From: Parapedobacter defluvii
GTDB lineage: Bacteria > Bacteroidota > Bacteroidia > Sphingobacteriales > Sphingobacteriaceae
Reading direction: 5' to 3'
DNA: 64,000 bases
NCBI RefSeq assembly: GCF_014642075.1
Contig: NZ_BMIK01000001.1
Span: 749,915-813,914, forward strand
This document shows, piece after piece, positions 12,483-51,363 of this stretch. Within the stretch, counting starts at the first letter, position 1, and every line of letters begins with the position of its first letter. Made by a program: the position numbers and the translations under genes. The notes beneath the pieces were generated by a model. That model was not told where the DNA came from and did no database searches. It saw only the letters and a list, made by a program, of their open reading frames with translations.

Positions 12483-12488
12483 AATAAG

Positions 12489-23540: not shown

Positions 23541-25010
23541 TCAACTTCCTAGTTTTATTCGTTTGATTTTTGCTTGCCCTTCTTTCGAAAAAGTGATTTT
23601 TAGATTTTTCATCGCACCCTGGTAGTTTGCAGAATCTCCGAGGTAAATTCGGTAAATGCGATTGCTGCCATCTGCAGAAATGGGTTGTTGAATTTGGAAA
23701 GATACCGCTTTTGGAAAGTCCCCCGATTTCTGCTGATTTTCTTTCGCTATATTTTTATCACCTTCCGACCAGTTTAGCCAATCCGTGAGGTCGGACTTAC
23801 CTACAGGTTGAATTTCGATCGTGAGCGACAATTCAGGATTTGCTGAAGTTATTTCTCCCTCGATTTCAAGGTAGGGTGTTTCAGCCGCTTTCCAAAAAGT
23901 TACAGGGCTGACAAGTGAAGTATTTTCTTTAAAATTAATGTGTAGACCATCCTGAACGGGGAAACCTGAGTCGGTTATGTCTCCCTCATAATACCAGTTT
24001 TGCCGTGACTGCTGGAAATTCCACTCGGGCTGGGGCTCAACCTTCCGGTTCGCTTTCGCGTAACCGCGGATATCCGATTCTGTTCCCAGAATTAGCGAGG
24101 TTGTATACGTCCACTTGATGTTATGATCTAAGATTTGCTTACCTATGGGGGCTGTGTGCCCCGTTTGTACATCTTTTTCCCCGCCAAAACCTTTGTGGCT
24201 ATCGTTTGGGTGGAACCCGCCGTTGAATGTCATCACTTCAGGCTGGAAAACTCCTATTCCATATCCCTTGTCGTCGAGCAGTGCCACCCAATTTTCGGGT
24301 GTATAAAAGTGCACCCATGGCCATCCTTTATTGTCTGACTTATCTACGACGACGGTGGTAGGCTGGTCGGTAAATGGTTGGTCGCCCAGGTAGGTTACCA
24401 ATTTATACCAGGGTCCATTTGTGTACACTGCTGGCATTTCTTGGGAACAGGCCTGATATTGGGTTGTATCGGAGCGGTGGTTGACGATTGTGGCCTCCAG
24501 GGTAATTACATTATCTGTTAAGGTATAAAGGCATTCAAATTCGCATTCTCCGGCCACACCCGTCTTGTGGGGCCATTGCATGGGAATGGCACGGACGAAT
24601 AGGACATTGTCGCCATACTTTTCGAAGTCAATGACTTGCGAACGATGCCCGCCTGCGTCTCCGGATTGGATGGGATTCCAGCCCAACCCCGCCCATTCAG
24701 GGGTTGGGGTTTCTCCATTCGGCCCCACATACGGCCAGGGGCCGCTGTAATAAGACAGTTGGATTTGGCGTCCCCAATCGTGGCTATTGATCATATTCTG
24801 TCCGCCGTTTTCCCGATCGGACAAAAAGGTAACCGCACCGCCTAGACTTAGATCAATACCCAGTTTGATGCGGTCGTTTTCCAGATACCGCATGGACGAT
24901 TCGACTACTGTTTCCTTCGCCGCAGGCTTTTGTGAACATGCGGTGAAGGTACCGAAGGATAGGTGAACCAATGGGACTAACAATAAACTGTATTTTTGCA
25001 TTATTCCCAT
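23541..25010 (-). CDS. lipoprotein with mutarotase-like and C-terminal beta-sandwich domains, function unknown
   Basis: A 489-residue lipoprotein with lipobox Phe-Thr-Ala-Cys. ATG 25010 lies 2 bp after the SusD stop; ATG 25001 is also possible, and the TTG at 25034 overlaps SusD and is less likely. The first two thirds (YLENDRIKLGIDLSLGGAV, then WGRQIQLSYYSGPWPY) look like a galactose-mutarotase-like supersandwich with many conserved aromatic residues. The last 130 residues (YLEIEGEI, then YRIYLGDSANYQGAMKNLKI) resemble a jelly-roll carbohydrate-binding module. No catalytic motif could be named. Position between SusD and GH78 suggests a surface glycan-binding or glycan-cleaving role. It might be an unassigned hydrolase or lyase, since supersandwich folds occur in both. 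Confidence 0.7.
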   Translation of the reverse strand: MGIMQKYSLLLVPLVHLSFGTFTACSQKPAAKETVVESSMRYLENDRIKLGIDLSLGGAVTFLSDRENGGQNMINSHDWGRQIQLSYYSGPWPYVGPNGETPTPEWAGLGWNPIQSGDAGGHRSQVIDFEKYGDNVLFVRAIPMQWPHKTGVAGECEFECLYTLTDNVITLEATIVNHRSDTTQYQACSQEMPAVYTNGPWYKLVTYLGDQPFTDQPTTVVVDKSDNKGWPWVHFYTPENWVALLDDKGYGIGVFQPEVMTFNGGFHPNDSHKGFGGEKDVQTGHTAPIGKQILDHNIKWTYTTSLILGTESDIRGYAKANRKVEPQPEWNFQQSRQNWYYEGDITDSGFPVQDGLHINFKENTSLVSPVTFWKAAETPYLEIEGEITSANPELSLTIEIQPVGKSDLTDWLNWSEGDKNIAKENQQKSGDFPKAVSFQIQQPISADGSNRIYRIYLGDSANYQGAMKNLKITFSKEGQAKIKRIKLGS

Positions 25011-25012
25011 TT

Positions 25013-27292
25013 TTACCAACCTGGATTTTGCCAATTTTGACCGGTGTAAGACTGCATCTTCGTAGCTTCCGACTGGCTGATGGGCTGCAACAGGTATTTA
25101 TCCGAATTTGTGTTGCGATCCTGCAGTTTGAATCTTGAATAGGTATAGCCATCGCCAGTCTTTGTAATCCGCATTCCTGTTACAAATTTGTCCGTTTCGT
25201 TGAGGATTTTCCACCGTCTTACGTCAAAAAAGCGATGTTCTTCGAAGGCTAGTTCAACCTGACGTTCGTTGCGATAGCGTACTTCGAAATTTTCTTTGCT
25301 TAGTCCCGAAGGTAGTGGAGGCATATCAACACGCGCCCTGATCCGGTTGAGTGCTTCCCGCGCCGAAAGTGCGCTGGCACCGCTTGCTTTAGCTTCTACC
25401 GCTGCATCTGGTCCGACAGACTGATAAGCTGCTTCGGCAAAGTTGAGGTAAAGTTCTCCTAAGCGGAAAATCTTCATGAGTCCGTCTGCATCTACACTAA
25501 CCCCAGATTTATAATTGTTGAATTTACGGAGGTAGTAACCGGTCCGTGTATACCGGGTTTCTGTGATGTTGCTGGAAATACCACTGTTGCCACCTACGTA
25601 CGTTTCAACCGGAGTGGCCGAAGGTGGATTGGTGAACGATTCGATCCGCAGATTGCGGATCGTGATTTCGTATCCATCCCCCCCGGTAGGATCAAACCGC
25701 AGAAAGTGATTTTCCGGCGATTGTCCACCATTGGAATTGACGCCGAAACCGAAATTTTCGATTGCGGTACTTAAATCGTATTCAAAGCGGGTCCACTCCG
25801 ATGCTTCTTGGATCGTGATGTTTTCTCCCGACGAAACTCCACCCTGAGGTCCGCCAGCTACGCAGAAGAAGAACTCGGCGTTGTTAACGGTTTTGTTGCT
25901 CTTGTATTCAAAACTGATCACACGACGTTCTCCGGCGCTCAGTGTATTACCCAATGTGGTCGTGAATACCCAAGGGTCACTGGAAGTTGTACGGATGGTT
26001 TGCTCTCCACCATTGGTTGTTAAATCAACGTTATTGAGTGGTGTCGTAAACGTAAGTGGATATAGATCTTTGTCTACGGAACCGCTGGTAAGCGAGCGGG
26101 GAGAATTATTGTAATAAACGGACGCATAGAAGCGTGGATCCCGCCCTTCATAGGGATTCTCGGGATTATAGCCCGAAGCAGGATTAAGGATCGGCTGAAG
26201 ATGCTGGGCATCGGAGTAGCCAAGTACTGGCATTTCACCCGTCGATTGCATGCCGTACGCGTCAACAAGTTCCTGTGAAGGGCCTGCACCCGCTTTTTCC
26301 GCTCCACTGGTAATCGGGGTTCCCGCAAATTTCCATACGTTGGTACGCGCTGTGGTCGATTCGAAGATGGTTTCTTTATCAATGGCACGACTGGGGTCAG
26401 ACCGCAGGATAAAGTAGTACGCATATGCGTTTTGAGCGATGTCCTCCGCCGGTTTTGTCTTAAAGAGTTCGAAGCCGTGGGTGAGGCATTGATCAAGTGC
26501 CTCTTTCGTAATTTCCGTCGCTTTTTCCCAGGTATATTTACTTCCGGCCTCATACCAGAGCGGGCTTGCGGCATACAGCGCAGCCTGTGATTTGACGGCA
26601 TATGCAAAAGCGCGTGTGATGGTTCCCCGTTCACTATCGCTAATATCCCACCGGAATCCGGTTGTGGCTGAATTGGTTTCAGGCAACGCCAGTGCTGCAT
26701 CACAGTCAGCGAGGATGAAGTCAACGCATTCTTCAAAACTGGCCCTACGATCTTGAGAGAAATCATGGGTTACTTCATAAGGTGTGTTGATGATCGGCAC
26801 GCCACCAAACCGTTTGATCAGTTGAAGATAGAAGTAGGCACGTAATACATGTATCTGCCCAATCCAACCATTTTTTTCGTTCTCGTCGATATTGGCTGTA
26901 GCAATGGACGGATCGGCAATATTGGTCAGAAAAGTATTGCATTTACGTATTCCCTGAAAGTAATGCGCCCAAGAGTAGGCACCTGCAACCGGATTGTTGG
27001 TCGAAGAAGTACGGTCATTGTACCAATCATTTACATTGCCATTGGCTCCGTCACTGGCATCGTGTGCTTCGTCGCTGAACGAGGCAAGCGGTGTACGTTG
27101 TCCCTGATACATAAAGCCGACCTGAGGCATATAGGAAAGGCATGCACCATAATAATTTCTTGTCCGTTGGTAGTTGCCAAAGACATCGGCTAAGGTCATC
27201 CTGCCATCTGAAGGTAAATCCAGGTCGGCACACGATTCCAAGCCGAAAAGACCAAAGAATATAATAGTTAATTTAAAAAATTGCTTCTTCAT
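25013..27292 (-). CDS. SusD-like lipoprotein A2 with an inserted beta-sandwich module
   Basis: A 759-residue SusD/RagB protein, about 170 residues longer than its paralogue at 44492. ATG 27292 (MKKQFFKL) starts 10 bp after the SusC stop; the upstream TTG overlaps SusC. The lipobox is Leu-Glu-Ser-Cys. Typical SusD features are present: LRAYFYLQLIKRFGGVPI, GRDPRFYASVYYN, NRIRARVDMP, YRNERQVELAFEEHRFFDVRRW and the terminal WQNPGW. Between residues about 402 and 560 it carries an extra beta-rich module that is cleanly absent from the paralogue, where PRNLGGGSG runs straight into VETFVGG. The insert resembles the N-terminal module of the DUF5722 protein at 46291 and may add a second glycan-binding surface. 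Confidence 0.93.
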   Translation of the reverse strand: MKKQFFKLTIIFFGLFGLESCADLDLPSDGRMTLADVFGNYQRTRNYYGACLSYMPQVGFMYQGQRTPLASFSDEAHDASDGANGNVNDWYNDRTSSTNNPVAGAYSWAHYFQGIRKCNTFLTNIADPSIATANIDENEKNGWIGQIHVLRAYFYLQLIKRFGGVPIINTPYEVTHDFSQDRRASFEECVDFILADCDAALALPETNSATTGFRWDISDSERGTITRAFAYAVKSQAALYAASPLWYEAGSKYTWEKATEITKEALDQCLTHGFELFKTKPAEDIAQNAYAYYFILRSDPSRAIDKETIFESTTARTNVWKFAGTPITSGAEKAGAGPSQELVDAYGMQSTGEMPVLGYSDAQHLQPILNPASGYNPENPYEGRDPRFYASVYYNNSPRSLTSGSVDKDLYPLTFTTPLNNVDLTTNGGEQTIRTTSSDPWVFTTTLGNTLSAGERRVISFEYKSNKTVNNAEFFFCVAGGPQGGVSSGENITIQEASEWTRFEYDLSTAIENFGFGVNSNGGQSPENHFLRFDPTGGDGYEITIRNLRIESFTNPPSATPVETYVGGNSGISSNITETRYTRTGYYLRKFNNYKSGVSVDADGLMKIFRLGELYLNFAEAAYQSVGPDAAVEAKASGASALSAREALNRIRARVDMPPLPSGLSKENFEVRYRNERQVELAFEEHRFFDVRRWKILNETDKFVTGMRITKTGDGYTYSRFKLQDRNTNSDKYLLQPISQSEATKMQSYTGQNWQNPGW
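25613..26089 (-). other. inserted beta-sandwich module within SusD A2
   Basis: This marks the roughly 160-residue insert in SusD A2. Key matches to residues 40-170 of the DUF5722 protein: IRTTSSDPWV against IRTTGADPYI, ISFEYKSNKTV against LAFEYQTTSSL, EWTRFEYDLSTAI against SWKTFSIDLGDQI, LRFDPTGG against IRLDFGDE, and ITIRNLRI against LDIKNVQL. The pattern fits a carbohydrate-binding-type jelly roll. Boundaries come from comparison with the insert-free paralogue and are accurate to about 10 residues. Confidence 0.7.
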
Positions 27293-27302: not shown

Positions 27303-30300
27303 TTAGAAGTTTGCACTTAAGCCAAGATTAAATACCCGATAGGGTTGAAACGTACTCATGCTCCCGATTTCAGGATCAACATACTTTGACCGCATGCGGT
27401 CAAAGGTGAATAAGTTTTGCGCCGTGAATGCCACCCGGATTCTTTCGGATTTTATCCGCTGCGATATGCTTTCCGGCAGTTGGTATGCGATTGTTAAGTT
27501 TCGTAATCGTAAGTAGGAGCGGCTGCTCAGGAAGTAATCATTAGCAACATGGTTGGTAGAAGGCGACAACGACAATGCCGGATAAGAGATTGTCTCACCC
27601 GCAGCATAACGCTCGGGTGTCCAAGCATGCAAGTGTATATCGTTGAAGATACCTTTCCCCAAATTTTCGTAGGCACCTATGCCGCTTAGGAACTGAGACG
27701 CGTGGTTGACACCGTGCAACAAGAAGGAAAACTCCCAGTTTTTCCAGGTAGCTCCTGCTGTTAAACTATATTCCTGCTCAGGTAACCGTGCATATCCCAT
27801 AGGAGCCATATCGCGTTCGTCAATGATGCCGTCTGCATTCAGGTCTTGATAGATGAAATCACCCACCCTGGGCGATCCGAATGAGTAGTCGAGTCCAGAA
27901 TTCGCGAGCTCCTCCGCAGAATTGAACATTCCATTGCCGTTCTGGTAGTCGATTTTATAACCCCAAAGTTGACCAAGGGCATAACCCTGGGAACGGTAAG
28001 GGTACGCATAATCGTCTCCTTTTGATGCTTCGTTAATGTCAATGACCTTGTTTTTTGCTTGCATGAAATTCGCTTGAGCGAAAACAGAAAAGTCCTTCGT
28101 GAACGTTTTGTTATAACCCAATGACAATTCCACCCCTTTGTTTTCCATCACACCGTCGTTCAACTTTGGATAGTAATTTAAGGGGATACCTTGGTATTCG
28201 GGTATTCTGGAACTGCTGTTTATCAGCATATTATTTACTTTATGGGTGAAATAGTCAACATTCAATGTAAATTGATTCCACAATCCGAGATCAAGCCCAA
28301 GGTTCAACTTTTTAATTCGCTCAGCTTCGAGCGCCGGATTACCCCGTTCCAATTCCGATCCATCGGACCGGATGTTATCCAGATACAGAAATCTCGAATC
28401 GCCCAATTGATCGTTGGCTGTAATGCCGTATGAAGCGCGCAATTTGAGCAGAGTCAGCAGGTTTGAATCGAAAAAGTCCTCTTTTGACGCAATCCAGGCA
28501 CCGGATATGGCGGGTGTGCTTGCGTACCGGTTGTCGGGGTGAAATTGCTCCGAACCTGAAAAACCGTAATCGGCTTTCAGGAAATACCGGTCTTTATAGC
28601 CATAGAGCACCGTTACCCCATAATTCTGACGCATATAAGGGAGCACAGTATTGCTGCTACCTGCGGCTTCTTTTTCCTGTTTTAGGTAATAGGTATGGGC
28701 AGAAGCATCCATGCTATGGTCGCCAAACCGGCGATTATAGTCCACGCTAGCCAACAGGTTCAGGTAATAAAAGAAAGTTGAGCCTTTGCCATAAGACAGG
28801 GGAGTATTTTCAAAGGATTTGTACGTGGAGAAGTCAGTTAACGTAGAGAAATCATCGCCTCTGAGTACCCTTTTATAGCTTTGAAGGGTATTAGTTTCAT
28901 TCCGTAGATACGTTTGGTAGGCCATTCCTCCTTTGACAGACAATCCCTTCGTCAAAAAATCCATGTTTAAATTGAGTCCCGTTTGGGCAATTACATTGGT
29001 TTCGATAATTGAGCGATAACCGGATCGATTTAACATGCCATAGACAGGATTATCCAAATCGGTTACGGTTACCACCTGATTGCTCATTTCAGGGTTGTCT
29101 TCGATGATTGGAGACAAGGGTCCGAACATCGTGGGGGGCTGCTGGAAAATCTGCTCATATATGCTCCATCCCATGCCACCGCCGGCTAGAATCTCTCGTT
29201 TTACGTTGCCCGTTAACCGCATGTATCCGCTCAGGTAGTTGTTAAACTTTACATCCATGTTGGTACGGAAATTTCCAATATTCACCCGTGGAGTGGGATC
29301 ATATTTCCGGTCCGGCTCATCGGCAATGATAAAAGGTTCCCCTTGATTGACGAAACTCAGGTTGGAAAAATAACGGAATTTTTCACTTCCACCGGAGACA
29401 TTCACTCCAATGCGTTGCCGCATTACGAAGTCTTTAATATACTGGTCAAACCAATTATTGTTTGGATATCCGATATCGCTTCCCAAACGGAACTGTTCAA
29501 TGTCATTTTCAGAGAACTGGGAAAAAGGACCTAAACCATCGCGTTCGCCAGCAGCATTACGTAGCTCCGCATATTGCGCTGAGTTGATGAATAAAGGCCG
29601 TTTAGTCATTTGCTGAAAAGACTGGTCTACATAACCCTCTACATTTAATTTGCCATTGTGGCCGCGCTTTGTGGTGATTACAATTGCACCTGAAGACCCC
29701 TGTATGCCATAAATGGCCGTAGCGGAAGCATCCTTTAGCACGGAAACACTTTCGATTTCTTTGGGCGAAATGAATTCGACATATTGAGTGGGGGCAATGA
29801 CTCCGTCAATGATAAGTAATGGATTATTGCCGTTTACGGATGAGGATCCGCGGATCGCTTTGGATAGGTTTCCATAACCGAAGAATGTCAACTCAGCGAT
29901 ATTGGAAACGACCGTTAGTCCAGGAAGCCGCCCTGCATAGGTTTCCGAGAGAACGTTGCTAGGTGTTTTATCCAATTCGGCACCCGAAACTGACGAAACG
30001 GCACCGGTAATAGACTCGCGGGTATAGGACTGATAACCATAGTTCACCGATCCACCCATATGATGAGGGTCAATTTTAAGAACAATTTCCTGATTGGCTA
30101 TCTGATCGAGTGATATACGTAGATTTTGATATCCCGATGCGGAAATCAGTAGGTAGTCTCCACCTGCAATTTCGGGCAAAGGGAAGGTGCCGTCTTTGGC
30201 TGTCAGCGATACATTTTTGCCGTCTTCCGTGGCGATAATTGCGCCACCTATAGGCTGATTAAATTCATTTATGATTCGAATTGATGCCGTACTCGCCTGT

Positions 30301-30371
30301 TGTGCGAAAAGCGGTGCTGCCATCATGAACAGGATGATGTAGAGTGCAGCGATTTTTATATTTTTTTCCAT
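27303..30371 (-). CDS. SusC-like TonB-dependent transporter A2, atypical TonB box
   Basis: A 1022-residue SusC-family transporter with signal peptide (to Leu-Phe-Ala-Gln), a carboxypeptidase-regulatory-like domain (about 26-100), plug (GRLPGLTVV, ALYGIQ-type motif SATAIYGIQGSSGAIVITTKRG region) and barrel, ending in FNLGLSANF. There is no STN domain. The usual acidic-valine TonB box (LDEVVVVGYG) is missing and is replaced near residues 106-114 by GGSVNYGYQ. It pairs with SusD A2 10 bp downstream and follows SusD A1 by 18 bp. Its closest relative in the window is the transporter at 41335-44472, which also has an altered TonB box. Import of an oligosaccharide is expected; coupling to TonB may differ from the first transporter of the quartet. 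Confidence 0.94.
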   Translation of the reverse strand: MEKNIKIAALYIILFMMAAPLFAQQASTASIRIINEFNQPIGGAIIATEDGKNVSLTAKDGTFPLPEIAGGDYLLISASGYQNLRISLDQIANQEIVLKIDPHHMGGSVNYGYQSYTRESITGAVSSVSGAELDKTPSNVLSETYAGRLPGLTVVSNIAELTFFGYGNLSKAIRGSSSVNGNNPLLIIDGVIAPTQYVEFISPKEIESVSVLKDASATAIYGIQGSSGAIVITTKRGHNGKLNVEGYVDQSFQQMTKRPLFINSAQYAELRNAAGERDGLGPFSQFSENDIEQFRLGSDIGYPNNNWFDQYIKDFVMRQRIGVNVSGGSEKFRYFSNLSFVNQGEPFIIADEPDRKYDPTPRVNIGNFRTNMDVKFNNYLSGYMRLTGNVKREILAGGGMGWSIYEQIFQQPPTMFGPLSPIIEDNPEMSNQVVTVTDLDNPVYGMLNRSGYRSIIETNVIAQTGLNLNMDFLTKGLSVKGGMAYQTYLRNETNTLQSYKRVLRGDDFSTLTDFSTYKSFENTPLSYGKGSTFFYYLNLLASVDYNRRFGDHSMDASAHTYYLKQEKEAAGSSNTVLPYMRQNYGVTVLYGYKDRYFLKADYGFSGSEQFHPDNRYASTPAISGAWIASKEDFFDSNLLTLLKLRASYGITANDQLGDSRFLYLDNIRSDGSELERGNPALEAERIKKLNLGLDLGLWNQFTLNVDYFTHKVNNMLINSSSRIPEYQGIPLNYYPKLNDGVMENKGVELSLGYNKTFTKDFSVFAQANFMQAKNKVIDINEASKGDDYAYPYRSQGYALGQLWGYKIDYQNGNGMFNSAEELANSGLDYSFGSPRVGDFIYQDLNADGIIDERDMAPMGYARLPEQEYSLTAGATWKNWEFSFLLHGVNHASQFLSGIGAYENLGKGIFNDIHLHAWTPERYAAGETISYPALSLSPSTNHVANDYFLSSRSYLRLRNLTIAYQLPESISQRIKSERIRVAFTAQNLFTFDRMRSKYVDPEIGSMSTFQPYRVFNLGLSANF

Positions 30372-30389: not shown

Positions 30390-32210
30390 TTACCATCCCG
30401 GATTTTGCCATTTTTGCCCCGTAACCGACTCTAGCGTAGCCGCCTCATTCAAGGGTAGGGGCAGCAGGAGATCACGGTTTTGATAGCCGCCACGCGGATT
30501 GTTGGAAATATTTCTGCGTGTATAGGTATAGCTGCCGTTCCCATTTTTGGTAATAACCATGGCGGTCAGCCACTTATTTAACTCGCTTAAATCTCCATCG
30601 GGGGTTTGCCAGCGTCTTACGTCAAAATAACGCTGTTCTTCCCAGGCTAGCTCTATTCTCCGCTCGTTCCGGATGCGCAGAATCAATTCTGCCGGTGATA
30701 GATCTGCAGGAAGTGCCGGCATTCCTGATCGAGCCCGTACCTCGTTTGCCGCGGCTCTTGCGTCTTCAAGATTGCCGGACTCGGCTGCCGCTTCGGCCAA
30801 ATCCAATAAGGTTTCGCCCAAGCGATAATATTTCCAGTTGGAATTGTTGATTTGATTGATTCCACTGGCACCGGGTGTGACGAGCTTGCAATGGTAATAA
30901 CCCGTGCGAGAAGCCATACGGTTTGTGATGTCAAAACTTGGTGCATGTTTTCCACCGGTGAACGTCTCTATTTCTACCGTTTGGTTGTCCCATATAATGT
31001 TGCTCCCATTGTACAATGCAGTTTCCGCCATCCGGGGATCGCGGTTTGCATAGGGATTGTTGGGATCATACAAGGTGTTTTTCGGATTGTAGTTGGGTTG
31101 CAGGTGTTTTTCATCCAAGTAAGGCTTATTGAGATCCAATACCGGCTGGCCATCAATGGTCTCGAACGCATCGATCAGTTCCTGAGTTGGAGAAGAAGCA
31201 CACTTATAAGTATTGGACATGTTGCTGCCGATATAGCCGATGTGCCATACGAATACGCCGCCAGACCTTACTTGAAAGATTGTTTCCTTGTCGCGTGGTG
31301 TTGCTGAATAATCGGCGTCTTGACATACCAGTTGGCGTAATGCTGCGGCAGGTCCGTTACCGAATACAGCGGGTTGTGTGGTCTGTGTAAACAACTCGTA
31401 TCCATTGGCCTTTAGTTGGGTCACCGCTTGCTTAATCACGTTGTAAGCTTCCGGCCAGTAATTTTGACCTTCGTTATGAAGCGGACTGGCGGCAAACAAC
31501 ATGGCTTTTGCTTTTAATGCACATGCCAGTGCTTTGGTCATCCGCATTGCGTCGTTCGGATCAGTGATGCGCCATGGTAAGTTTGTTTCCGCAATCGCAG
31601 CATCACATTCTGCAACAATAAATTTGGCTACATCATATACCGATGACCGGGTCAATGACGAAAAGTCGGCATCAAAGGGTACCGTGGCATCTAATATAGG
31701 CACTTTGCCGAACCATTTGACAAGCTCCATATAAAAGAAGGCACGCAATACCCTCGCTTCTGCTTTAAATCGCCCGCGGTTGCTTTCCGTTTTTACCGCC
31801 GCATTATCAATGAGTTCAATGAATTGAGAACACAGGCGGATTTGCTGCCAGGAGCGGTTCCAGTAATCCGTATTACCGGCCCCGTGACCATCGGGCGCAT
31901 CACGCAGGCTGTGGGAGGAAGCAGAGTTGTTATCATTGTAAAGGCCGGTAGTGATGACCCCCTGTGCTTCGTCGGAAGTCCACGCATCGTCGGTAGCTGC
32001 CACCACAGCTTCTTCGAAGAACCAGTACGCGTATCCTTTTTGTGGAATGTTTTGATAGCAGGTATTCAACAATGCTTCTACTTTTTCCGGATCGGACAAT
32101 ACCTCGTCCATCTGCATATTGCCGTCCGGTGCCATGTCTAAGGCATCGGTACAACTTGCATAAGGAAGCACGAAAAGCAATATCATGAAGGTTAATCGTT
32201 GGAATTTCAT
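30390..32210 (-). CDS. SusD-like lipoprotein A1
   Basis: A 606-residue SusD/RagB surface lipoprotein; lipobox Tyr-Ala-Ser-Cys. ATG 32210 is preferred over a TTG at 32219. Near-N-terminal DALDMAPDG, central LRAFFYMELVKWFGKVPIL, NRDPRMAETALYNGS, NEVRARSGMPALP, RIRNERRIELAWEEQRYFDVRRW and the terminal WQNPGW place it in the same subgroup as SusD B1 (39418-41331), its clear paralogue. It starts 18 bp after the SusC A1 stop. The expected role is glycan capture for SusC A1. Confidence 0.95.
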   Translation of the reverse strand: MKFQRLTFMILLFVLPYASCTDALDMAPDGNMQMDEVLSDPEKVEALLNTCYQNIPQKGYAYWFFEEAVVAATDDAWTSDEAQGVITTGLYNDNNSASSHSLRDAPDGHGAGNTDYWNRSWQQIRLCSQFIELIDNAAVKTESNRGRFKAEARVLRAFFYMELVKWFGKVPILDATVPFDADFSSLTRSSVYDVAKFIVAECDAAIAETNLPWRITDPNDAMRMTKALACALKAKAMLFAASPLHNEGQNYWPEAYNVIKQAVTQLKANGYELFTQTTQPAVFGNGPAAALRQLVCQDADYSATPRDKETIFQVRSGGVFVWHIGYIGSNMSNTYKCASSPTQELIDAFETIDGQPVLDLNKPYLDEKHLQPNYNPKNTLYDPNNPYANRDPRMAETALYNGSNIIWDNQTVEIETFTGGKHAPSFDITNRMASRTGYYHCKLVTPGASGINQINNSNWKYYRLGETLLDLAEAAAESGNLEDARAAANEVRARSGMPALPADLSPAELILRIRNERRIELAWEEQRYFDVRRWQTPDGDLSELNKWLTAMVITKNGNGSYTYTRRNISNNPRGGYQNRDLLLPLPLNEAATLESVTGQKWQNPGW

Positions 32211-32228
32211 ATCATGCAACTTAAAAGG

Positions 32229-35200
32229 TTAGAAAGTAATATTAAGACCAAAATTGATCATCTTGGTCAATGGATAAACCAACGGGTCATTTTGCTCGGG
32301 ATCTACCGTGTCAATCGGGAATTTCTTAAACGTCAAAAGGTTATTTCCGTTTATATAGGCCCTCAACTGCTGCACCCGGATTGGTTTCAGCAATTTGTCG
32401 GGAAGGCGATAACCAACTTCCATGTTTTTCAGGCGTAGAAACGAGCGGTCCATAATGAAAAAGTCATTGGCAACATGACTGACGCCCGAACTCATGGCAA
32501 GTGCGGGATAGGCGATGGCCTCGCCGTTTGCATACCGTTCGGGAGTCCAGGCTTGGCGGTGCCAGCCATTATAAAATCCAACTAATGCGAATTCATTGAC
32601 ACCCCATCCATTTGTATATTTGTTGCTTTGACCGATGCCTGTGAGCAGAAACGATAAGTCGAAATTCTTATAGTTCAACGTACCTGAGAAACCATAAGAT
32701 ACCCGCGGAACATCTGGATACCCGATCGGTACCAAGTCACGGTCGTTAATGACATTATCCCCATTGACGTCGACGTATTTGAAATCTCCTAGACGGGGGG
32801 TCCCACCCATTTGGTAGTCGGGTAAGTTATCAAGTTCTTCTTGGGTATTGATATACCCATTGCCATTGCTGTAATCAATCTTGTATCCGAATGGTTGACC
32901 GATGCTGAATCCTGTTCTGCGGTAGCGATAAGCATAGTCTTCACCATAACGGACCTCATCGTAATTAACGATTGTATTCTTATTGTATGCGAAGTTTCCT
33001 TTCAGCACGACTGAAAAATCCGTACTCATATTTTTGCGGTAAATGAGCTCCGCTTCAAAACCTTTGTTATCCACAACGCCGATATTAACTTTGGGGATAT
33101 TGTCTAAGGGGACACCTTGCAAAGCTGGGACGGTTTTGCGGCTGATCAATATTTTATCCCGGTGTTCTTTAAATACATCGATATTCAGGGAGATACTATT
33201 CAAAAATCCGAGCTCAAGACCGATGTTGGTTTTGCGGGCTATTTCCCATTGGAGGGCTTCGTTACCCATTCTTCCCTGCGTGATGCCCTGACCCCGTCCC
33301 AATGTGGGGAACACACCACCCCCGATGTTGATGAAACTTTGATACAGAAATCGGTCTTCACCCATTTTATCATTTCCGGTGAGACCGTGTGATGCACGTA
33401 ACTTTAAGTTGGTCAGTACAGGATTGTCTGCAAGGAACGCCTCGTTGCTTGCTACCCAGCCGACTGAAAATGCTGGAAATGAACCGAATCGATTTTTCGG
33501 TGAGAACTGTTCCGATCCGTTGTAGCCATAGTTAAACTCGGCTAGATAACGATCGTCGTAGTTATAGGTTGCTCGTCCTACGATACCCACAATGTTGTAG
33601 GGCAAATCGGCTGAGTACTTATCCCAATTGTCCCGCTGATAAAGGAACATACCGCCGACATTATGCCGTCCAAATGCCCGGCTGTAATTAAGCGATGTTT
33701 GATAATTCATATAATAGCGTGTCGACATCGATTTGGATAACCGGATTGCAGCATCCTGATTCGTACGGATCGCCGAATATCCACTGGGGTCGTCTGCGCT
33801 GCGCCCCACATGAAATGCATAGGTGTCGAGGCTACGCACTCCTTGTAAAATGGTGCCAGCCTGGCTGTCGAAGGCGATCATTCCTTTGGCTGATAATCCC
33901 TTTGTGATAAAGTCCAATCCCCAGTCCAGCGCGAACGACGAGTTCAGCATGTTGGTTGTTTCCTGCCGGTAACCGCGACGGTTGATTTCTCCGTATGTAT
34001 TTCGATCTTGACCCGATTGTGCGATGATCTCATTTTCAGGAACTCCATATCCGGCAACCGTCACTGGCCCCGGATCTGTAGGAGGTGTTCCCCAAGTGTA
34101 GGCAATCATGTTTTGTACCATCCCCGCAACACTACCGCCGAATAAGTCGATCGTTTGCGGTGTATTCATTTTTTCCAGATATGTGGCAATATTCAACGAT
34201 GCCTTTAGATTTTTGGCGATATTATAATCGATGTTACCGCGGAAATTATAGCGATCCATTTTATAGCTCGGATCGTAACCGAGGAAACTTTCAGGTTCTG
34301 TTTTGAAGTTTCCGCCTTGCCCGATGTATCCTGCATTCAGGAAATAAGTGAACCGCTCGCCTCCGCCATTGAAATTAGCGTTGGCTCGGGTTTGCGGGGC
34401 CCAATCGCGGAAGTAATCGTGAAATACGTCGCGATCGGGATAAAATATGGGATCCTCCCCGCTCCTGTATTTATCGATCATGTATTGGGTAAAAGGCATT
34501 TGATCTTCCGTCGCGTCAGGATTGGAATTCAGGAATGCCTGGTTTCGCAATTCAGCAAATTCCCAAGAGTGGATGCGATCTGCTTGGGACAAAAAGCGTT
34601 GGATACTATGATCTACCGAGACGTTTAACTCCGATTTGCCTGCTTCACCCCGGCGCGTGGTGATCATGATGACACCATTGGCACCACGGACTCCGAATAC
34701 CGCAGTTGCAGATGCATCTTTCAAAATACTGATGGATTCTACTTCACTGGGATCTATTTTACTGATGTTATCACGTGGGATACCATCAATTAGAATCAAA
34801 GGGGAGTTGTCGTTCAGGGTTCCCAATCCACGGAGGTATAGATTGACCATGTCATTTCCCGGTTGTCCTGAAGATTGCAGTCCTACCAATCCGGGTAACC
34901 GACCGGCCAATGAGGTGGATAAATTGGCAGATGCGCTATGCTTTAAATCTTTGGTATCGATGGTTGAAATGGCGGCTGTTACGGAAACCTTCTTTTGTAC
35001 ACCATAACCTACAACCACTACTTCGTCCAGACCAAAGTTTTCGGATTCTAATGTGACTTCAATAAACTTTGCATCGCGGACGGGGATTTCCTGCCCTAAA
35101 TAACCCACCAAGCGAAACGTCAGCGTATCGCCAATGCTTATTCCCGTCAGTGAGAATATACCGTCTGTATTTGACGATGCGGCGGCACGCTTATTTTTAA

Positions 35201-35360
35201 CACTGACTGTTACACCAGCCAATGGGCCGTCAGCATCTTTCACTCTTCCGCTTATATCCAGTCCCTGTTGCGCATTTAAGGCAATTGGTGTGGAAGCTAA
35301 GGCGAAAACAAGCGTACATAACAGCCACGAATTTTTTAAATTTCGGAAGCGTTTAGACAT
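32229..35360 (-). CDS. SusC-like TonB-dependent transporter A1
   Basis: A 1043-residue transporter, first gene of the minus-strand arm. ATG 35360 is preferred over a TTG at 35369. Signal peptide to about Ala-Leu-Asn-Ala; carboxypeptidase-regulatory-like domain about 33-105; canonical TonB box LDEVVVVGYG at 111-120; plug with LAGRLPGLVGLQ, LILIDGIPRDN and DASATAVFGVRGANGVI; barrel ending in MINFGLNITF. No STN domain, so regulation is likely by a factor other than a FecR/ECF pair. Its paralogue is SusC B1 (36232-39405), transcribed divergently from the far side of the 871-bp intergenic region; the two share box position, plug sequence and C-terminus. Confidence 0.95.
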   Translation of the reverse strand: MSKRFRNLKNSWLLCTLVFALASTPIALNAQQGLDISGRVKDADGPLAGVTVSVKNKRAAASSNTDGIFSLTGISIGDTLTFRLVGYLGQEIPVRDAKFIEVTLESENFGLDEVVVVGYGVQKKVSVTAAISTIDTKDLKHSASANLSTSLAGRLPGLVGLQSSGQPGNDMVNLYLRGLGTLNDNSPLILIDGIPRDNISKIDPSEVESISILKDASATAVFGVRGANGVIMITTRRGEAGKSELNVSVDHSIQRFLSQADRIHSWEFAELRNQAFLNSNPDATEDQMPFTQYMIDKYRSGEDPIFYPDRDVFHDYFRDWAPQTRANANFNGGGERFTYFLNAGYIGQGGNFKTEPESFLGYDPSYKMDRYNFRGNIDYNIAKNLKASLNIATYLEKMNTPQTIDLFGGSVAGMVQNMIAYTWGTPPTDPGPVTVAGYGVPENEIIAQSGQDRNTYGEINRRGYRQETTNMLNSSFALDWGLDFITKGLSAKGMIAFDSQAGTILQGVRSLDTYAFHVGRSADDPSGYSAIRTNQDAAIRLSKSMSTRYYMNYQTSLNYSRAFGRHNVGGMFLYQRDNWDKYSADLPYNIVGIVGRATYNYDDRYLAEFNYGYNGSEQFSPKNRFGSFPAFSVGWVASNEAFLADNPVLTNLKLRASHGLTGNDKMGEDRFLYQSFINIGGGVFPTLGRGQGITQGRMGNEALQWEIARKTNIGLELGFLNSISLNIDVFKEHRDKILISRKTVPALQGVPLDNIPKVNIGVVDNKGFEAELIYRKNMSTDFSVVLKGNFAYNKNTIVNYDEVRYGEDYAYRYRRTGFSIGQPFGYKIDYSNGNGYINTQEELDNLPDYQMGGTPRLGDFKYVDVNGDNVINDRDLVPIGYPDVPRVSYGFSGTLNYKNFDLSFLLTGIGQSNKYTNGWGVNEFALVGFYNGWHRQAWTPERYANGEAIAYPALAMSSGVSHVANDFFIMDRSFLRLKNMEVGYRLPDKLLKPIRVQQLRAYINGNNLLTFKKFPIDTVDPEQNDPLVYPLTKMINFGLNITF

Positions 35361-35535
35361 AATTTGCAATTAATTGGATAAATAATCTAGTTCATACTTG
35401 GTTTCCATTGCGGATTTCTCTCCGTTAAGGGGTTATCGCATTTGAATAATGCCTATTTATCAAAATCTGAACTTTAATATAAGGTTATTAATAAGAAGAA
35501 ATGTCTCCAGTGTGTCGGTCCCTCGGCCAACGATG

Positions 35536-44491: not shown

Positions 44492-46261
44492 ATGAAGGCA
44501 ATCAGTAAAATAAGCTATATATTTTTAGTGACGTTGATCACATCGGCTTGCCAAAAGCAGCTGGATTTGGATCCCGACGGACGGATTACCATGGACGAAG
44601 TGTTCAGTGACTACAATCGCACACGGGGATACCTCAATTCGTGTTATGGATATGCGCCTGCACCCAATATGGACCGTGCTTCATTTACTGACGAAGCGCA
44701 GGATGCAGATGACGCAATCGCGAACTCAAAATTTACCATCTGGTATGCGGGAAGTATCACCTCTTCTTCTTTTCCCACTTACTCCGTAGACGGTAACCCC
44801 TGGATAGACCTCTACGAAGGTATCCGGAAGTGCAATGTCTTTTTGGAGAATATCCAAACCGCAACTGTATATGTGTCGGAAGAGGAAAAAAATGGCTGGA
44901 TCGCGCAAGCGCATACATTACGGGCATTGTATTATCTGCAGCTCATAAAGCGCTACGGCGGCGTGCCTATTTTTGATAAGCCACTGGAAATAGATCACGA
45001 TTTTTCAATGGATAGGCGGGCATCGTTTTCGGAAGTTGTGCAGTTTATTTTGAACGACTGCGATGCGGCATTGGCGGTACCGGCTACACGCGATGGGTTT
45101 TCATGGCAGATTTACGAAAATCAGTTCGGGAAAATGAGCCGTGCGGTCGCTTACGCTATCAAGTCCCAAGCGATTACATACGCTGCCAGCCCATTGTGGT
45201 CCGACGGCACGTTTACCTGGGAAGATGCGACGCGGATCAATGCCGAGGCATTGGCCCAGTGTTTGGCAAACGACTATCGGTTGTTTGACGTGCAACCCGG
45301 AGCAGACGTAGCACAGAATGCGTATGCGCTGTATTTTATTACCTCTTCAGACGATGAACGTGCAGTCGACAAAGAAACCATTTATCAGTTGGGAGAGCAG
45401 ATGGCCGTGTGGCGTGATGCAGGTATGCCCACCAATCCGGGCATGGACCGCTCAGGCCCCGGGCCTACCCAGGATTTGATAGACAGTTACGAGATGGCCA
45501 ACGGGGAACCGGCTATCCTGGGATATGAGGATGCAGATCGGCTTAAGCCGATCATCAATCCGGCGTCGGGATACAATGAAAACGATCCCTATACGGGAAG
45601 AGATCCGAGGTTCTACGCCTCCATTTATTACAATGGTGCGCCACGCAACCTGGGCGGAGGCTCGGGGCGTACCGTAGAGACGTTTGTTGGAGGTGCGGAT
45701 GGGATTTCTTCGAACGACCGGAAACATACCCGTACGGGCTACTACATGCGGAAATTCAACAACCATCGTTCGGGTCAGAACAATAGTGCCGATGGCGCTA
45801 TACGCTTGTTCCGATTGGCGGAATTATACCTGAACTTTGCGGAGGCAGCTTACCAATCTGCCGGCCCGGATGTAACGATTACGGAAGGTAATCTATCGAT
45901 GAGTGCCCGGGATGCGGTGAATGCCGTAAGGGCACGGGCGAAGATGCCCCCATTGCCGGCTGGGCTTAGCAACGAAGATTTTGAGCGTAGATACCGCAAC
46001 GAACGGCGGATAGAACTCGCTTTTGAAGAACATCGTTATTTTGATGTCAGGCGTTGGAAGATCTTGTCCGAAACCGATAAATTTGTTACCGGTATGCGCA
46101 TTCAAAAACAGGGTGAAACACTTGCTTACTCCCGTTTCAAACTTAGGAACCGGAATAGCTTTTCTGACAAGTATCTGCTGTATCCGATTGATCAGGATGA
46201 AGTTAATAAGATTTTTAACCTGACCGGAGAGAACTGGCAGAATCCGGGTTGGTTGGATTGA
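44492..46261 (+). CDS. SusD-like lipoprotein B2
   Basis: A 589-residue SusD/RagB lipoprotein; lipobox Thr-Ser-Ala-Cys. LDLDPDGRITMDEVFSDYNR near the N-terminus, LRALYYLQLIKRYGGVPIF, GRDPRFYASIYYNGAPRNLG, RARAKMPPLPAGLS, YRNERRIELAFEEHRYFDVRRW and the terminal WQNPGW make it the paralogue of SusD A2. It lacks the 160-residue insert of A2: GGGSGRTVETFVGG runs uninterrupted. The next gene, 29 bp on, encodes the DUF5722 protein whose N-terminal module matches that insert. Confidence 0.95.
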   Translation: MKAISKISYIFLVTLITSACQKQLDLDPDGRITMDEVFSDYNRTRGYLNSCYGYAPAPNMDRASFTDEAQDADDAIANSKFTIWYAGSITSSSFPTYSVDGNPWIDLYEGIRKCNVFLENIQTATVYVSEEEKNGWIAQAHTLRALYYLQLIKRYGGVPIFDKPLEIDHDFSMDRRASFSEVVQFILNDCDAALAVPATRDGFSWQIYENQFGKMSRAVAYAIKSQAITYAASPLWSDGTFTWEDATRINAEALAQCLANDYRLFDVQPGADVAQNAYALYFITSSDDERAVDKETIYQLGEQMAVWRDAGMPTNPGMDRSGPGPTQDLIDSYEMANGEPAILGYEDADRLKPIINPASGYNENDPYTGRDPRFYASIYYNGAPRNLGGGSGRTVETFVGGADGISSNDRKHTRTGYYMRKFNNHRSGQNNSADGAIRLFRLAELYLNFAEAAYQSAGPDVTITEGNLSMSARDAVNAVRARAKMPPLPAGLSNEDFERRYRNERRIELAFEEHRYFDVRRWKILSETDKFVTGMRIQKQGETLAYSRFKLRNRNSFSDKYLLYPIDQDEVNKIFNLTGENWQNPGWLD

Positions 46262-46290: not shown

Positions 46291-48444
46291 ATGATGAAAA
46301 GGATGAAGACAAATTGCATGACCGCAATTACGTTTTGTTGCGGTTTCATGTTTTTTTTGGCGTGCAGGGGAAATCCGCCGGAGCCGCCACCCGTTATTAA
46401 ACAAACCGCTTATCTTTCGTTTGATGCAGCAACGGCCAACCAACTCGATATTACGGCTAAGAGCAGTCATCAATATCAAATACGAACGACGGGCGCGGAC
46501 CCGTATATCCAGCTATTACCGTTGACATCCGGACTTGCGGATGGCCATGTGGTATTAGCATTTGAATATCAAACCACTTCATCACTTCATCATTTACAGG
46601 TTTTTTTGGGGGCTCCGGTTAGCGAAGAACGTTCGCTAAAGACTTCACAGGTAGCATCCGCTCCGTCGTGGAAAACATTCTCCATTGATTTGGGCGACCA
46701 AATCAGGGATTTCAGTTGGGGCAACACGGGAGATTTCATCCGGCTGGACTTTGGCGATGAAGCGAACATCACGTTGGATATTAAGAATGTGCAGTTGCGC
46801 AAAAGAAATGAAGCGGAAGAAAAATTGGCCCGGGAGCGGGAGCTTTTCAGGCAGGATGACGAGGCATTGAACCAGGAGATTGCGGCCTATTTGAATCGGA
46901 GTTATCCCGCAGAAATTGCAGATGTATCGGTGAGTAAGGAGACAATTACGATACGTGGAACCCTCCCTGGGGGCGAAGCGGCGGTACTTGCGGAAGTTAT
47001 GCCTTATGAGCAGCTTAGCCGGATTGAGACATTTAAAAATAAACATCCGATCGATGGCTCACCGTTCAGTCTATCGTTGGATCGCTATGTAGAGCAGGAG
47101 GGATTTCGGTACGATAGAGCGCTTTCGGCGTGGGCGGTTGTTCGTGAAGGCGGTACCCGGGACGAGCTATTGTCACATGCCCACTATGCGAACGATATTC
47201 AGGCCCAATGGAGTATGCCAGCTCAGTCGCTTGCCCATAAAAAAGGGCTGGGAGGATTTTCCGCCAACCGGGGCTTTATCGAAGATCTCGATGACCTGCC
47301 GGTAGGTAGCGTAACCGTCAATGTGCCGATAACCAGCTTCCTCTATTTGAATGCACACCCAGGCGCTTACGTTCACGAATACGGTGGCCGGCCCTATTAT
47401 TTTGACCGTGCAAAAATAGACGAGTTGGATAAAACCTTCCGTGCTGCAGCGGCAAAAAATATCATTGTCTCTGCCATCATTTTAGTACAAAAAGCGGCGG
47501 AATGTGCAGATCCGGCAGTTGGCAGGTTGCTGCAGCACGAACACTATACCGCGGATGCGTTTTTTACGATGCCGAGGTTAGACAATGCGGAAAGCGTATA
47601 CTGCTATGCTGCGGCACTTGATTTTCTTGCCGACCGGTATTGCCGGCCCGGAAGCCCCTATGGACGGATCCATCACTGGATTATGCACAACGAAGTCGAC
47701 GCGGGAAGTACCTGGACCAACATGGGAAAAAATAGACCCTTGTTCGTGTTTTTAGACAACTATTACAAGTCAATGCGCATCTGCTATACCATTGCGAGAA
47801 ATTACGATGAACGGTCCGAAGTATTGGGGTCGTTTACCCATTCGTGGACAAATCCGGCTCCTGGCGGTGACTACGCTACCCTGGATATGATTAATGGATT
47901 ACTCCGGTATTCCGAGGTTGAAGGCGATTTCCAGTGGGGCTTAGCCTATCATCCCTATCCGGAAGATTTGAATGAACCCAAAACCTGGAACGATAGCCAG
48001 GCAACGTTCAGCACGAAAACTCCCCTGGTTACGTTCAAAAACCTGGAGGTACTGGATAATTGGGCTAAAAAACCGGAGAATACCTATTTGAAAACAAACA
48101 AGCGGACGATTTGGCTCTCAGAAAATGGGACCAATTCCCGTACGTATGCCGAAAAGGATTTACAAGAACAGGCTGCTGGGCTTGCCTATGCGTGGAAAAA
48201 ACTGGAACGTCTGGACGGAATTGATGCCATGCAGTGGCATAACTGGATCGATAACCGGGGTGAGTTCGGCTTACGGATCGGACTGCGCAGGTTTCCGGAT
48301 GATGAAGAGGATCCCGGAGGCAGGAAGCCGGTTTGGTATGTCTATCAGGCAGCGGGAACGGAACGTGAAGACGCTGTTTTCGAGCCGTATAAGTCAATCA
48401 TAGGCCTAAGTAATTGGGATGAGATTATCAAAGACATACAATGA
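46291..48444 (+). CDS. DUF5722 family lipoprotein, putative clan-A-like glycoside hydrolase
   Basis: A 717-residue lipoprotein; lipobox Phe-Phe-Leu-Ala-Cys with Cys25. Parts: an N-terminal beta-sandwich (about 37-170) of carbohydrate-binding type; a short charged helix (about 173-200); a small beta region; then a TIM-barrel-like domain from about 260 to the end, matching what I recall as DUF5722. The barrel has Asn467-Glu468 (MHNEVD) and Glu611 (WLSENG), the order and approximate separation expected for the acid/base on strand 4 and nucleophile on strand 7 of a retaining clan GH-A enzyme. The first residues (LGGFSANRGFIEDL) lie at the start of the barrel. This suggests an active endo- or exo-hydrolase, but the substrate is unknown. 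The N-terminal module recurs inside SusD A2. Confidence 0.8.
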   Translation: MMKRMKTNCMTAITFCCGFMFFLACRGNPPEPPPVIKQTAYLSFDAATANQLDITAKSSHQYQIRTTGADPYIQLLPLTSGLADGHVVLAFEYQTTSSLHHLQVFLGAPVSEERSLKTSQVASAPSWKTFSIDLGDQIRDFSWGNTGDFIRLDFGDEANITLDIKNVQLRKRNEAEEKLARERELFRQDDEALNQEIAAYLNRSYPAEIADVSVSKETITIRGTLPGGEAAVLAEVMPYEQLSRIETFKNKHPIDGSPFSLSLDRYVEQEGFRYDRALSAWAVVREGGTRDELLSHAHYANDIQAQWSMPAQSLAHKKGLGGFSANRGFIEDLDDLPVGSVTVNVPITSFLYLNAHPGAYVHEYGGRPYYFDRAKIDELDKTFRAAAAKNIIVSAIILVQKAAECADPAVGRLLQHEHYTADAFFTMPRLDNAESVYCYAAALDFLADRYCRPGSPYGRIHHWIMHNEVDAGSTWTNMGKNRPLFVFLDNYYKSMRICYTIARNYDERSEVLGSFTHSWTNPAPGGDYATLDMINGLLRYSEVEGDFQWGLAYHPYPEDLNEPKTWNDSQATFSTKTPLVTFKNLEVLDNWAKKPENTYLKTNKRTIWLSENGTNSRTYAEKDLQEQAAGLAYAWKKLERLDGIDAMQWHNWIDNRGEFGLRIGLRRFPDDEEDPGGRKPVWYVYQAAGTEREDAVFEPYKSIIGLSNWDEIIKDIQ
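46408..46800 (+). other. N-terminal beta-sandwich module of the DUF5722 protein
   Basis: Codes for residues about 40-170. Recurrent motifs are IRTTGADPYI, LAFEYQTTSS, SWKTFSIDL and LDIKNVQLR, shared in the same order with the insert in SusD A2 (25613-26089). It is probably a jelly-roll carbohydrate-binding module that holds the enzyme near its glycan. Confidence 0.65.
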
Positions 48445-50289: not shown

Positions 50290-51363
50290 CAACAAAGAAT
50301 AACCTGTCGTTTTTACTCCTTATTTTCTGTTGTAATTTTAGTTACACATTGAAAGGACAGGAAACGCCCATTCACAGCATCGGCAATGGTCAGATGCTGG
50401 TTTACGGTCGGCAAGCATGTGGAGTTTACGGGATACCTCATCATCCAAGCATTCAACTACTTGGAAGAAACCGGAGACGATGCGTTTGTAAAAGAGATCT
50501 TCCCGATGCTTAACTGGGCCTGGCAGGTGCAGGCCGAGGAATTGATCCAGGGAATGCTTCCGTTTAATGGCGATGAAACTTATGTAGCCGGGGGTATTTT
50601 GCCGAGAGAGGCACTTTGCGATGGTTCCGCGGAAGCCACGTTGCTATTCATCAATGCAAGTGAGGATTTGCTGGCATGGTCAAAAGATAAACAGATGTGG
50701 AATGAGAAAGAAATGACTTTGGCCGAACAGATTTTAACGGATACTAAAGACCGCTATCGGAGAAATTTTATTTCGGAAGGCAGGTTGCAAACCAATAACC
50801 CCGACCGGATGGAAGGGCAGGAATATCCGTTGTTTCGGCATGGGGTATGCGAGCAGATAGGCCGCGTTGAAGGTTGCGAAGTCTTCGGATGGACACAAAA
50901 AACCCAGACCAACCGATATCTTTGCGCCAATTGTTTTGCCAAATCGTCGCTTCCGGCCGTTCGGTCGAACGTTTATTTCATACCTTCCGTTACCCTGACA
51001 CCCTGTTATATCAACGATTCTTTTCTTGACGGGAATTTGACGTCCCGTTTTGTCGAAGAGCTGGCCAGCGATTACATAAAAACGGGCAGATTCCCGTCTC
51101 AACAGCAGGGTACGGGGCAGTATAAGATATTGGGGTATGACTACGGCTTTTTCCTTTATGCGCTAACCCAAATTAATCATCAGCTTCGATATAAAATCTA
51201 TGAAGAAATGATGGAGGCGATCGATAAAACGGGAGCTTGGGTGGAATATTACATGGAAGGTAAACCAAACGGAACCTTTTGCCGTCCCTGGGAGAGTGCC
51301 ATCAATATAGAGGCAGCTATTCTCTTTGCTGAACGTGAAGGGGCAATGGATAAAAAGAAATAA
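50286..51363 (+). pseudogene. decayed secreted (alpha/alpha)-barrel-like protein: intact start, frameshift and internal loss
   Basis: Translation would start at ATG 50286, overlapping the upstream stop, and gives a good signal peptide (MTTKNNLSFLLLIF to LKGQ) plus about 18 residues (IGNGQMLVYG) before running out of frame and stopping at 50513. The rest of a helical enzyme-like protein is read in the next frame from about 50410 to 51363 (GYLIIQAFNYLEETGDDAF, LNWAWQVQAEELIQGMLPFNGDETYVAGGILPRE). An 8-bp direct repeat gtttacgg (50400-50407 and 50424-50431) sits at the junction. The simplest reading is that the N-terminal half has been deleted, leaving signal and C-terminal parts out of frame. 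The C-terminal part looks like an (alpha/alpha)6 barrel, but no family was recognised. A functional internal start at 50386 is possible but would lack a signal peptide. Confidence 0.65.

What the first reader, a model, noticed from the sequence alone, without database searches (positions are those of the whole stretch)
25613..26089. Beta-sandwich module inserted into a SusD matches the N-terminus of a nearby DUF5722 enzyme
Seen: SusD A2 has about 160 extra residues exactly where its paralogue SusD B2 has none, and the insert shares ordered motifs (IRTT-x2-DP, FEY, W-x2-F-x3-DL, IRN/IKN) with residues 40-170 of the DUF5722 protein, encoded directly after SusD B2. Inference: a carbohydrate-binding module has moved between an enzyme and a transporter lid, so a SusD may have gained a second glycan site or an enzyme-like docking surface. 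Domain insertions in SusD proteins are rarely noted.
Basis: partly seen in the sequence, partly recalled or inferred. Interest (0 to 1): 0.8.

Follow-up and report, generated by a model that had tools for sequence, protein, structure and literature searches.

The report
Sugar-binding-type module built into transporter lid
In one family of bacterial sugar importers, the lid protein repeatedly carries an extra domain shaped like a carbohydrate-binding module at one fixed spot, and enzymes and surface-binding proteins of the same kind of gene cluster carry relatives of that domain, so bacteria appear to graft a glycan-catching domain onto the importer itself.

Summary
Confirmed and enlarged. SusD A2 (25013-27292, minus) carries a 156-residue insert (25610-26077) that its paralogue SusD B2 lacks. 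It is homologous to residues 40-173 of the DUF5722 protein (BLASTP 30% identity, E 2e-13; profile-profile 99.9%, E 5e-36). AlphaFold2 gives a confident beta-sandwich (pLDDT 94.8); the best PDB matches are carbohydrate-binding modules, CBM29 first. Pfam and NCBIfam lack the family.

It is not a quirk of this genome: 54 of 80 related loci kept by a ranked scan carry it in the same SusD loop. It is also the C-terminal domain of lipoprotein-like proteins beside such SusDs. Three SusDs carry an unrelated module at that loop, 48-54% identical to one in GH99-like proteins of this cluster type: a recurrent socket.

The window's two copies are anciently separated. Five of eight genomes with an insert-bearing SusD have no DUF5722, arguing against docking to that enzyme. 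Most likely the module adds a glycan-binding surface to the lid; binding is untested.

The parts
25013..27292 (-). SusD A2 (759 aa from ATG 27292; GTG 27316 also open): lid protein with inserted module
   Evidence: Pfam SusD_RagB PF07980 E 3.9e-40 in two stretches, SusD-like_3 PF14322 E 4.5e-16; lipobox-like cysteine at residue 21 read by eye
25610..26077 (-). Inserted type I module, residues 406-561 of SusD A2
   Evidence: Absent from SusD B2; homologous to the DUF5722 N-terminus; beta-sandwich, pLDDT 94.8 (modelled segment 25604-26077); CBM fold
44492..46261 (+). SusD B2 (589 aa), paralogue without insert; empty site at about residue 391
46291..48444 (+). DUF5722 protein (717 aa), lipobox-like cysteine at residue 25 read by eye
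   Evidence: PF18989 E 7.9e-115, residues 313-712; sequence
46408..46809 (+). Type I module at the N-terminus of the DUF5722 protein, residues 40-173
27303..30371 (-). SusC partner of SusD A2 (SusC name from recall)
   Evidence: ORF, adjacent to SusD A2; SusC1-SusD1-SusC2-SusD2 order kept in relatives
30390..32219 (-). SusD A1 (first lid of the double pair), no insert
   Evidence: ORF; gene order
32229..35369 (-). SusC A1 (name from recall)
   Evidence: ORF; gene order
23541..25034 (-). 497-aa protein directly downstream of SusD A2; family unknown
   Evidence: No Pfam or NCBIfam hit; homologues in many of the same clusters; two remote homologues (L041, L042) bear a weak N-terminal match to the module (E 3.5e-7 and 3.6e-6)

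Best explanation
The insert is a mobile carbohydrate-binding-type module (type I) grafted into a loop of the SusD lid of a double SusCD importer. It most likely gives the lid an additional glycan-binding surface on the outside of the transporter, doing in cis the job that the C-terminal domain of a separate surface glycan-binding protein (SGBP) does elsewhere: holding the polymer beside the lid and the surface enzymes so that released oligosaccharides are captured. Shown here: homology between SusD insert, DUF5722 module and SGBP-type C-terminal module; CBM-type fold; fixed insertion site; repeated gain, loss or exchange. Inferred: sugar binding, its specificity, its position in the closed complex, and the direction of transfer.
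For: Homology in three contexts. Confident beta-sandwich; all 39 PDB matches with E <= 0.001 are CBMs or other sugar-binding modules, an SGBP-B (7kwb) or a multimodular xanthanase (two entries). Same loop used in 60 of 87 SusD2 hosts: 28-33 residues between fixed motifs without an insert, 167-210 with one. Module at the C-terminus of lipoprotein-like proteins near SusD in 9 loci; the eight of ten such proteins that I scanned have DUF4959 (one weakly), Big_2, BACON or F5/8-C partner domains. The known levan SGBP C-terminal domain docks beside SusD and the enzyme (PMC7618045, passages). An unrelated module shared with GH99-like proteins uses the same site in 3 SusDs.
Against: No binding data. 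TM-scores to the 39 matches are moderate (0.36-0.59 by query length) with 7-16% identity, so no sugar-binding residues can be transferred. The most conserved residues (DP, W, R-x-D) may be structural. No full-length model was obtained: the single-sequence job gave pLDDT 32. Module-bearing SGBP-type proteins are not the strict alternative to inserts: 6 of 26 insert-less loci and 3 of 56 type I loci have one. Where the insert sits relative to the lid's ligand site is not shown.
Confidence: 0.64

Rival explanations
1. The insert is an assembly or docking module: it holds the lid against another surface component (enzyme, second SusCD pair, SGBP) through protein contacts, perhaps module to module.
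For: The same module occurs in several proteins of one cluster type; utilisomes are real assemblies (PMC7618045, passages).
Against: 5 of 8 genomes with an insert-bearing SusD have no DUF5722, so that protein is not a necessary partner; the fold matches sugar-binding modules; an unrelated module occupies the same site in 3 SusDs. Other partners are not excluded.
Confidence: 0.18
2. The insert is a passive spacer or steric element, for example widening the gap between lid and enzymes, kept without ligand.
For: SusD tolerates extra loops (F5_SusD-like has an extra region 382-444 and does not bind glycan alone: PMC9599597, passages); 27 of 87 hosts lack any insert.
Against: A folded, conserved module related to parts of sugar-processing proteins is more than a spacer needs; its core motifs persist across distant hosts.
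Confidence: 0.13
3. Recent transfer inside this genome from DUF5722 into SusD A2.
For: Both genes lie in one window and SusD B2 is next to DUF5722.
Against: Only 30% identity; the SusD A2 insert is up to 71% identical to SusD inserts of other species and sits in an all-SusD group.
Confidence: 0.02

Closest known systems
SusD / SGBP-A lids (PF07980, PF14322), e.g. Bt1762
   Same: Host protein is a SusD by Pfam and by its place beside SusC
   Different: Carries a 156-residue CBM-like module in a loop. By rough profile coordinates the loop lies some 10-15 residues before the position of the Bt1762 ligand contact R368; not shown in three dimensions
F5_SusD-like (PMC9599597, passages)
   Same: A SusD with extra regions (328-340 and 382-444)
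   Different: Described there as random coil with some beta-sheets, about 63 residues, not a CBM-like domain; whether it uses the same loop was not tested
SGBP-B / SusE-F-type surface glycan-binding lipoproteins
   Same: Relatives of the module form the C-terminal domain of DUF4959, Big_2 or BACON lipoprotein-like proteins near these SusDs; SGBP-B 7kwb is a fold match
   Different: Here the module is covalently part of the transporter lid, not a separate protein
CBM29, also CBM4, CBM11, CBM30, CBM35, CBM86 folds
   Same: Beta-sandwich fold, Foldseek E from 1.6e-5
   Different: No sequence match to a Pfam or NCBIfam CBM family; 7-16% identity
DUF5722 (PF18989) protein N-terminal region
   Same: Homologous module, one copy, or three in tandem in two proteins of G250
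   Different: Different protein context; ancient split
CBM35 inserted in the catalytic module of GH66 cycloisomaltooligosaccharide-forming enzymes
   Same: A CBM inserted inside another fold (PMC10316084, passage)
   Different: That host is an enzyme, not a transporter lid

Membership tests
SusD family | SusD_RagB and SusD-like domains above gathering score | tested here: met
   138.8 vs 23.1 bits and 60.1 vs 27 bits
SusD family | Gene next to its SusC | tested here: met
   27303-30371; order kept in relatives. SusC itself was named by recall and by mutual similarity, not by a family search
SusD family | Lipoprotein signal | tested here: inconclusive
   Cysteine 21 after a hydrophobic stretch read by eye; no predictor run
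Carbohydrate-binding module | CBM-type beta-sandwich fold | tested here: met
   (predicted model; moderate TM-scores)
Carbohydrate-binding module (a named CBM family) | Sequence match to a named CBM family | tested here: not met
   No Pfam family hits more than 2 of 75 members, best E 0.0035; no NCBIfam hit for the two window modules; PDB profile best E 1.3. CAZy's own models were not at hand
Carbohydrate-binding module | Binds a carbohydrate | not testable with these tools
   Needs an assay
DUF5722 N-terminal module family | Homology to the N-terminal module of DUF5722 proteins | tested here: met
SGBP-type C-terminal module | Homology to C-terminal modules of lipoprotein-like proteins near SusD | tested here: met
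   E 1.1e-41
Type II insert (module of GH99-like and GH130-like proteins) | Homology to type II | tested here: not met
   Probability 0.1%, E 0.51

The most novel reading that the evidence does not exclude
One loop of a SusD subfamily is an evolutionary socket into which unrelated sugar-binding-type modules, of kinds carried by the enzymes and binding proteins of the same cluster type, have been plugged, swapped and lost. This makes a covalent, one-chain counterpart of the SGBP arm of the utilisome and lets the importer lid itself catch polymer.
Probability: 0.45. Interest if true: 0.78.

Novelty: new variant of a known kind. Interest (0 to 1): 0.63.

Why it matters
SusD lids are usually treated as one-fold proteins, with polymer capture assigned to separate lipoproteins (my recall of the field). 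A lid subfamily that carries CBM-type modules at a fixed site, of kinds shared with the clusters' other proteins, would show that capture can be built into the transporter, and gives isolated, testable modules and natural with/without/swapped pairs. It may also help name the unknown substrate of this widespread double-SusCD cluster, which carries DUF5722 and GH99-like proteins with no function assigned by the libraries searched.

Tried and rejected
Structure of SusD A2 from its single sequence: pLDDT 32, discarded. That cost one of the two jobs, so the full-length lid, the DUF5722 module and the type II module were not modelled. A second structural aligner was not available. The first profile was too variable for the public genome scan, so the full SusD alignment was used. 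Plasmid search: no match. PDB sequence search with the type I profile: one hit, E 1.3; type II: none. Two weak matches were set aside by eye: L004 (E 0.81) and L014 (G505, E 2.6e-4, a long protein of another kind). Chance similarity rejected (against 94). Strict exchange of SGBP for insert rejected: 3 type I loci have both.

Withdrawn on checking: that the insertion slot lies between the Bt1762 ligand contacts R368 and Y395. The PDB chain of 6z8i appears to be numbered from the precursor, 18 residues ahead of the paper's mature numbering (chain 6zlt is 18 shorter), which puts the slot some 10-15 residues before R368. Weakened on checking: that insert-less lineages are basal in the A2 half; the two host trees disagree.

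Literature: DUF5722, 0 papers. SusD with 'domain insertion', 3 papers listed, of which I saw one passage of one (an enzyme insertion). Other word searches. I saw passages only, of eight papers, and listings of the rest. None of the passages describes a folded module inserted in a SusD; one describes extra loops and regions in a SusD. The library is open-access only and the searches were few.

Full report
What is there. The window holds a divergent pair of clusters, each with SusC-SusD-SusC-SusD. In the minus arm the second lid, SusD A2, has 156 extra residues (406-561; 25610-26077) against SusD B2 of the plus arm, which otherwise matches at 50% and 65% identity on either side. The insert is homologous to residues 40-173 of the DUF5722 protein encoded 29 bases after SusD B2. 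Names such as SusC, GH78, GH106, GH127 and GH99-like are mine from recall; the only library support for 'GH99-like' is a Pfam match below cut-off (14.4 of 33 bits) for the window protein at 51375-53450, and searches found no catalytic family for the others tested.

Is it more than chance? BLASTP gives E 2e-13 for the single comparison. Profiles built from 57 SusD inserts and from 28 DUF5722 modules match at 99.9% probability, E 5e-36. Both sets were collected with a first model that contained members of both kinds (A1), so set membership is not independent; the pairwise match is. The insert profile against the unrelated type II family gives 0.1%.

Fold. With 75 sequences aligned AlphaFold2 gives pLDDT 94.8, pTM 0.87, a beta-sandwich. 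Foldseek against the PDB gives 39 matches with E <= 0.001: CBM29 first (1gwk, E 1.6e-5, TM 0.59/0.63), then CBM4, CBM30, CBM11, CBM35, CBM86 and other sugar-binding modules and the SGBP-B 7kwb; two are a multimodular xanthanase. Identity is 7-16% and TM by query 0.36-0.59, so this is a fold-level match. Pfam and NCBIfam do not know the module (75 members scanned against Pfam, no family in more than 2).

Breadth. In draws not chosen by similarity the module is rare. Family: 6 of 151 genomes with a single-sequence query (4 with an insert-bearing SusD, 2 with a DUF5722 protein only). Order: 12 of 400 (8 with an insert-bearing SusD, 2 DUF5722 only, 2 with the weak match in homologues of the 497-aa protein). 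Genus: 2 of 9. Phylum: 3 of 395, one of them the discarded G505. In some searches at most ten candidates per genome were scored. A scan of one genome per species (84,980 held) with the SusD alignment found 291 relatives and kept the best 80. By hand count, 54 of these 80 have a type I insert, 3 a type II insert and 23 none. Since the query was mostly insert-bearing and hits were ranked, these shares are not frequencies in nature. Type I hosts by record title include Sphingobacterium, Parapedobacter, 'bacterium A37T11', Membranihabitans, Proteiniphilum, Draconibacterium, Maribellus and many Tannerella-like and other Bacteroidales MAGs. The window's own genome has a second type I SusD (L002, 39% identical over the insert region).

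The site. Across 87 distinct hosts the stretch between the FYASxYYN-type and TRTGYY-type motifs is 28-33 residues in 27 and 167-210 in 60. In close hosts NGAVRFLDQP-DGKK-VETFVGG (L082) stands against NGAVRYLDQP-[type II module]-VVETFVGG (L136), and type I inserts open in the same slot. Relative to Bt1762, profile positions 361-578 match chain residues 355-570 of 6z8i. Allowing for precursor numbering (6zlt, the same protein, is 18 shorter), the slot falls some 10-15 residues before R368, one of the seven ligand residues in PMC7782687 (passages). The alignment itself was not printed, so this is rough and says little about distance in space.

Type II. In L136, L138 and L141 the slot holds another module. 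It is 48-54% identical to a module inside GH99-like proteins (L136:13312-15966 and L141:13615-16116, in the same loci as their SusD; L107:12369-14873, in a locus with a type I SusD) and 30-45% to one in proteins of about 490 aa, two of them cut by locus ends. Of three of the latter scanned, one passes Pfam's GH130 cut-off and two match it below cut-off. The three GH99-like proteins carry a T9SS sorting domain, fitting export. L110, nearest host to L136 and L141 (support 100), carries type I, so unrelated modules alternate at the site among close hosts.

Third context. In 9 loci a separate lipoprotein-like protein ends in the type I module (10 copies: L098, L099 twice, L101, L139, L144, L145, L149, L154, L163). 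It is the next gene after SusD2 in seven of these loci (with a second copy following in L099) and one gene further on in L098 and L101. Eight of the ten were scanned: three have DUF4959 above cut-off, one a weak DUF4959 match, three Big_2, one BACON; one of the Big_2 proteins also has an F5/8-C domain. This is the build of an SGBP; the lipoprotein signal was read by eye. Six of 26 insert-less loci and 3 of 56 type I loci have one; loci are of unequal length, so absences are soft.

History. Host tree (84 of 87 rows, three partial ones left out, insert columns removed): at least 13 changes of state, strong branches forcing 5 for type I. A rooted version (93 rows: 12 outgroup SusDs, six hosts left out) also gives 13, the outgroup counted as a fourth label. 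Gains and losses cannot be told apart. In the rooted tree the insert-less branches L146/147, L149/154 and L139/144/145 lie at the base of the A2 half, and five of these seven have the separate lipoprotein-like protein, which would suggest a move from there into the lid. But the backbone branches have 86-94 support, and in the unrooted tree the same seven form one group (89) nested among insert-bearing hosts. So this polarity is only a hint. Module tree (89 of 95 rows; six lost to name clashes): DUF5722 modules form one group. A careful tree of 77 rows (no lipoprotein modules, seven divergent SusD rows and one DUF row left out) splits SusD from DUF at 93/87, and puts 8 B2-type inserts next to the DUF modules at 100/99. 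One ancient transfer followed by descent and losses is therefore possible for type I; the direction depends on the root.

Does the insert need DUF5722? Of 8 genomes of the window's family in which I found a type I SusD, 3 have DUF5722 (window genome, G068, G101) and 5 do not (G019, G627, G715, G698, G590, each 97% complete or more, E <= 1e-10). Of 4 insert-less ones, 2 do. The 6 DUF5722 proteins in these 12 genomes all have the module. So the SusD module is kept without that protein.

How it most likely works. In the levan utilisome the C-terminal sugar-binding domain of the SGBP docks beside SusD and the enzyme (PMC7618045, passages). Here such a domain would be part of the lid: it would hold polymer while surface enzymes cut it, then the lid closes over the product. 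Binding, specificity and geometry are inference. The recalled GH106-, GH78- and GH127-type neighbours suggest a rhamnose- and arabinose-bearing glycan.

Novelty. No paper that I found in the open library describes a CBM-type module inserted in a SusD (listings and passages only). Kept as a new variant of a known kind: the host is an ordinary SusD, the module a CBM-like fold; the combination, its fixed site and the swap of unrelated modules are what is new to me.

Noticed in passing
L166:1121-3322 (minus), window genome contig C7: A third SusD of this genome (733 aa) has a different, about 130-residue CBM4_9-like stretch (resemblance from recall; no Pfam CBM hit for it) in another loop near its C-terminus, so lids of this genome carry inserts at two sites.
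   Followed up: partly
L027:4513-8724 and 10285-14490: Two DUF5722 proteins of genome G250 (about 1400 aa) have three type I modules in tandem.
   Followed up: no
L083:9065-13129 (same record as L152): A 1355-aa ORF joins type I module, DUF5722 and a GH99-like protein in one chain; in L082 the two are neighbouring genes.
   Followed up: no
window 50386-51363: 325-aa ORF whose homologues in L107 and L124 are about 675 aa: probably a fragment of a longer gene.
   Followed up: no
L041:1393-3231 and L042:1393-3231: Homologues of the window's 497-aa protein start with a stretch weakly matching the module (E 3.5e-7 and 3.6e-6), perhaps a bridge to a larger module superfamily.
   Followed up: no
L136:13312-15966, L141:13615-16116, L107:12369-14873: GH99-like proteins with the type II module carry T9SS type A sorting domains (L136).
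   Followed up: partly
L074: In G019 two SusC genes stand beside the insert-bearing SusD but no ORF was assigned to the first SusD of the double pair.
   Followed up: no
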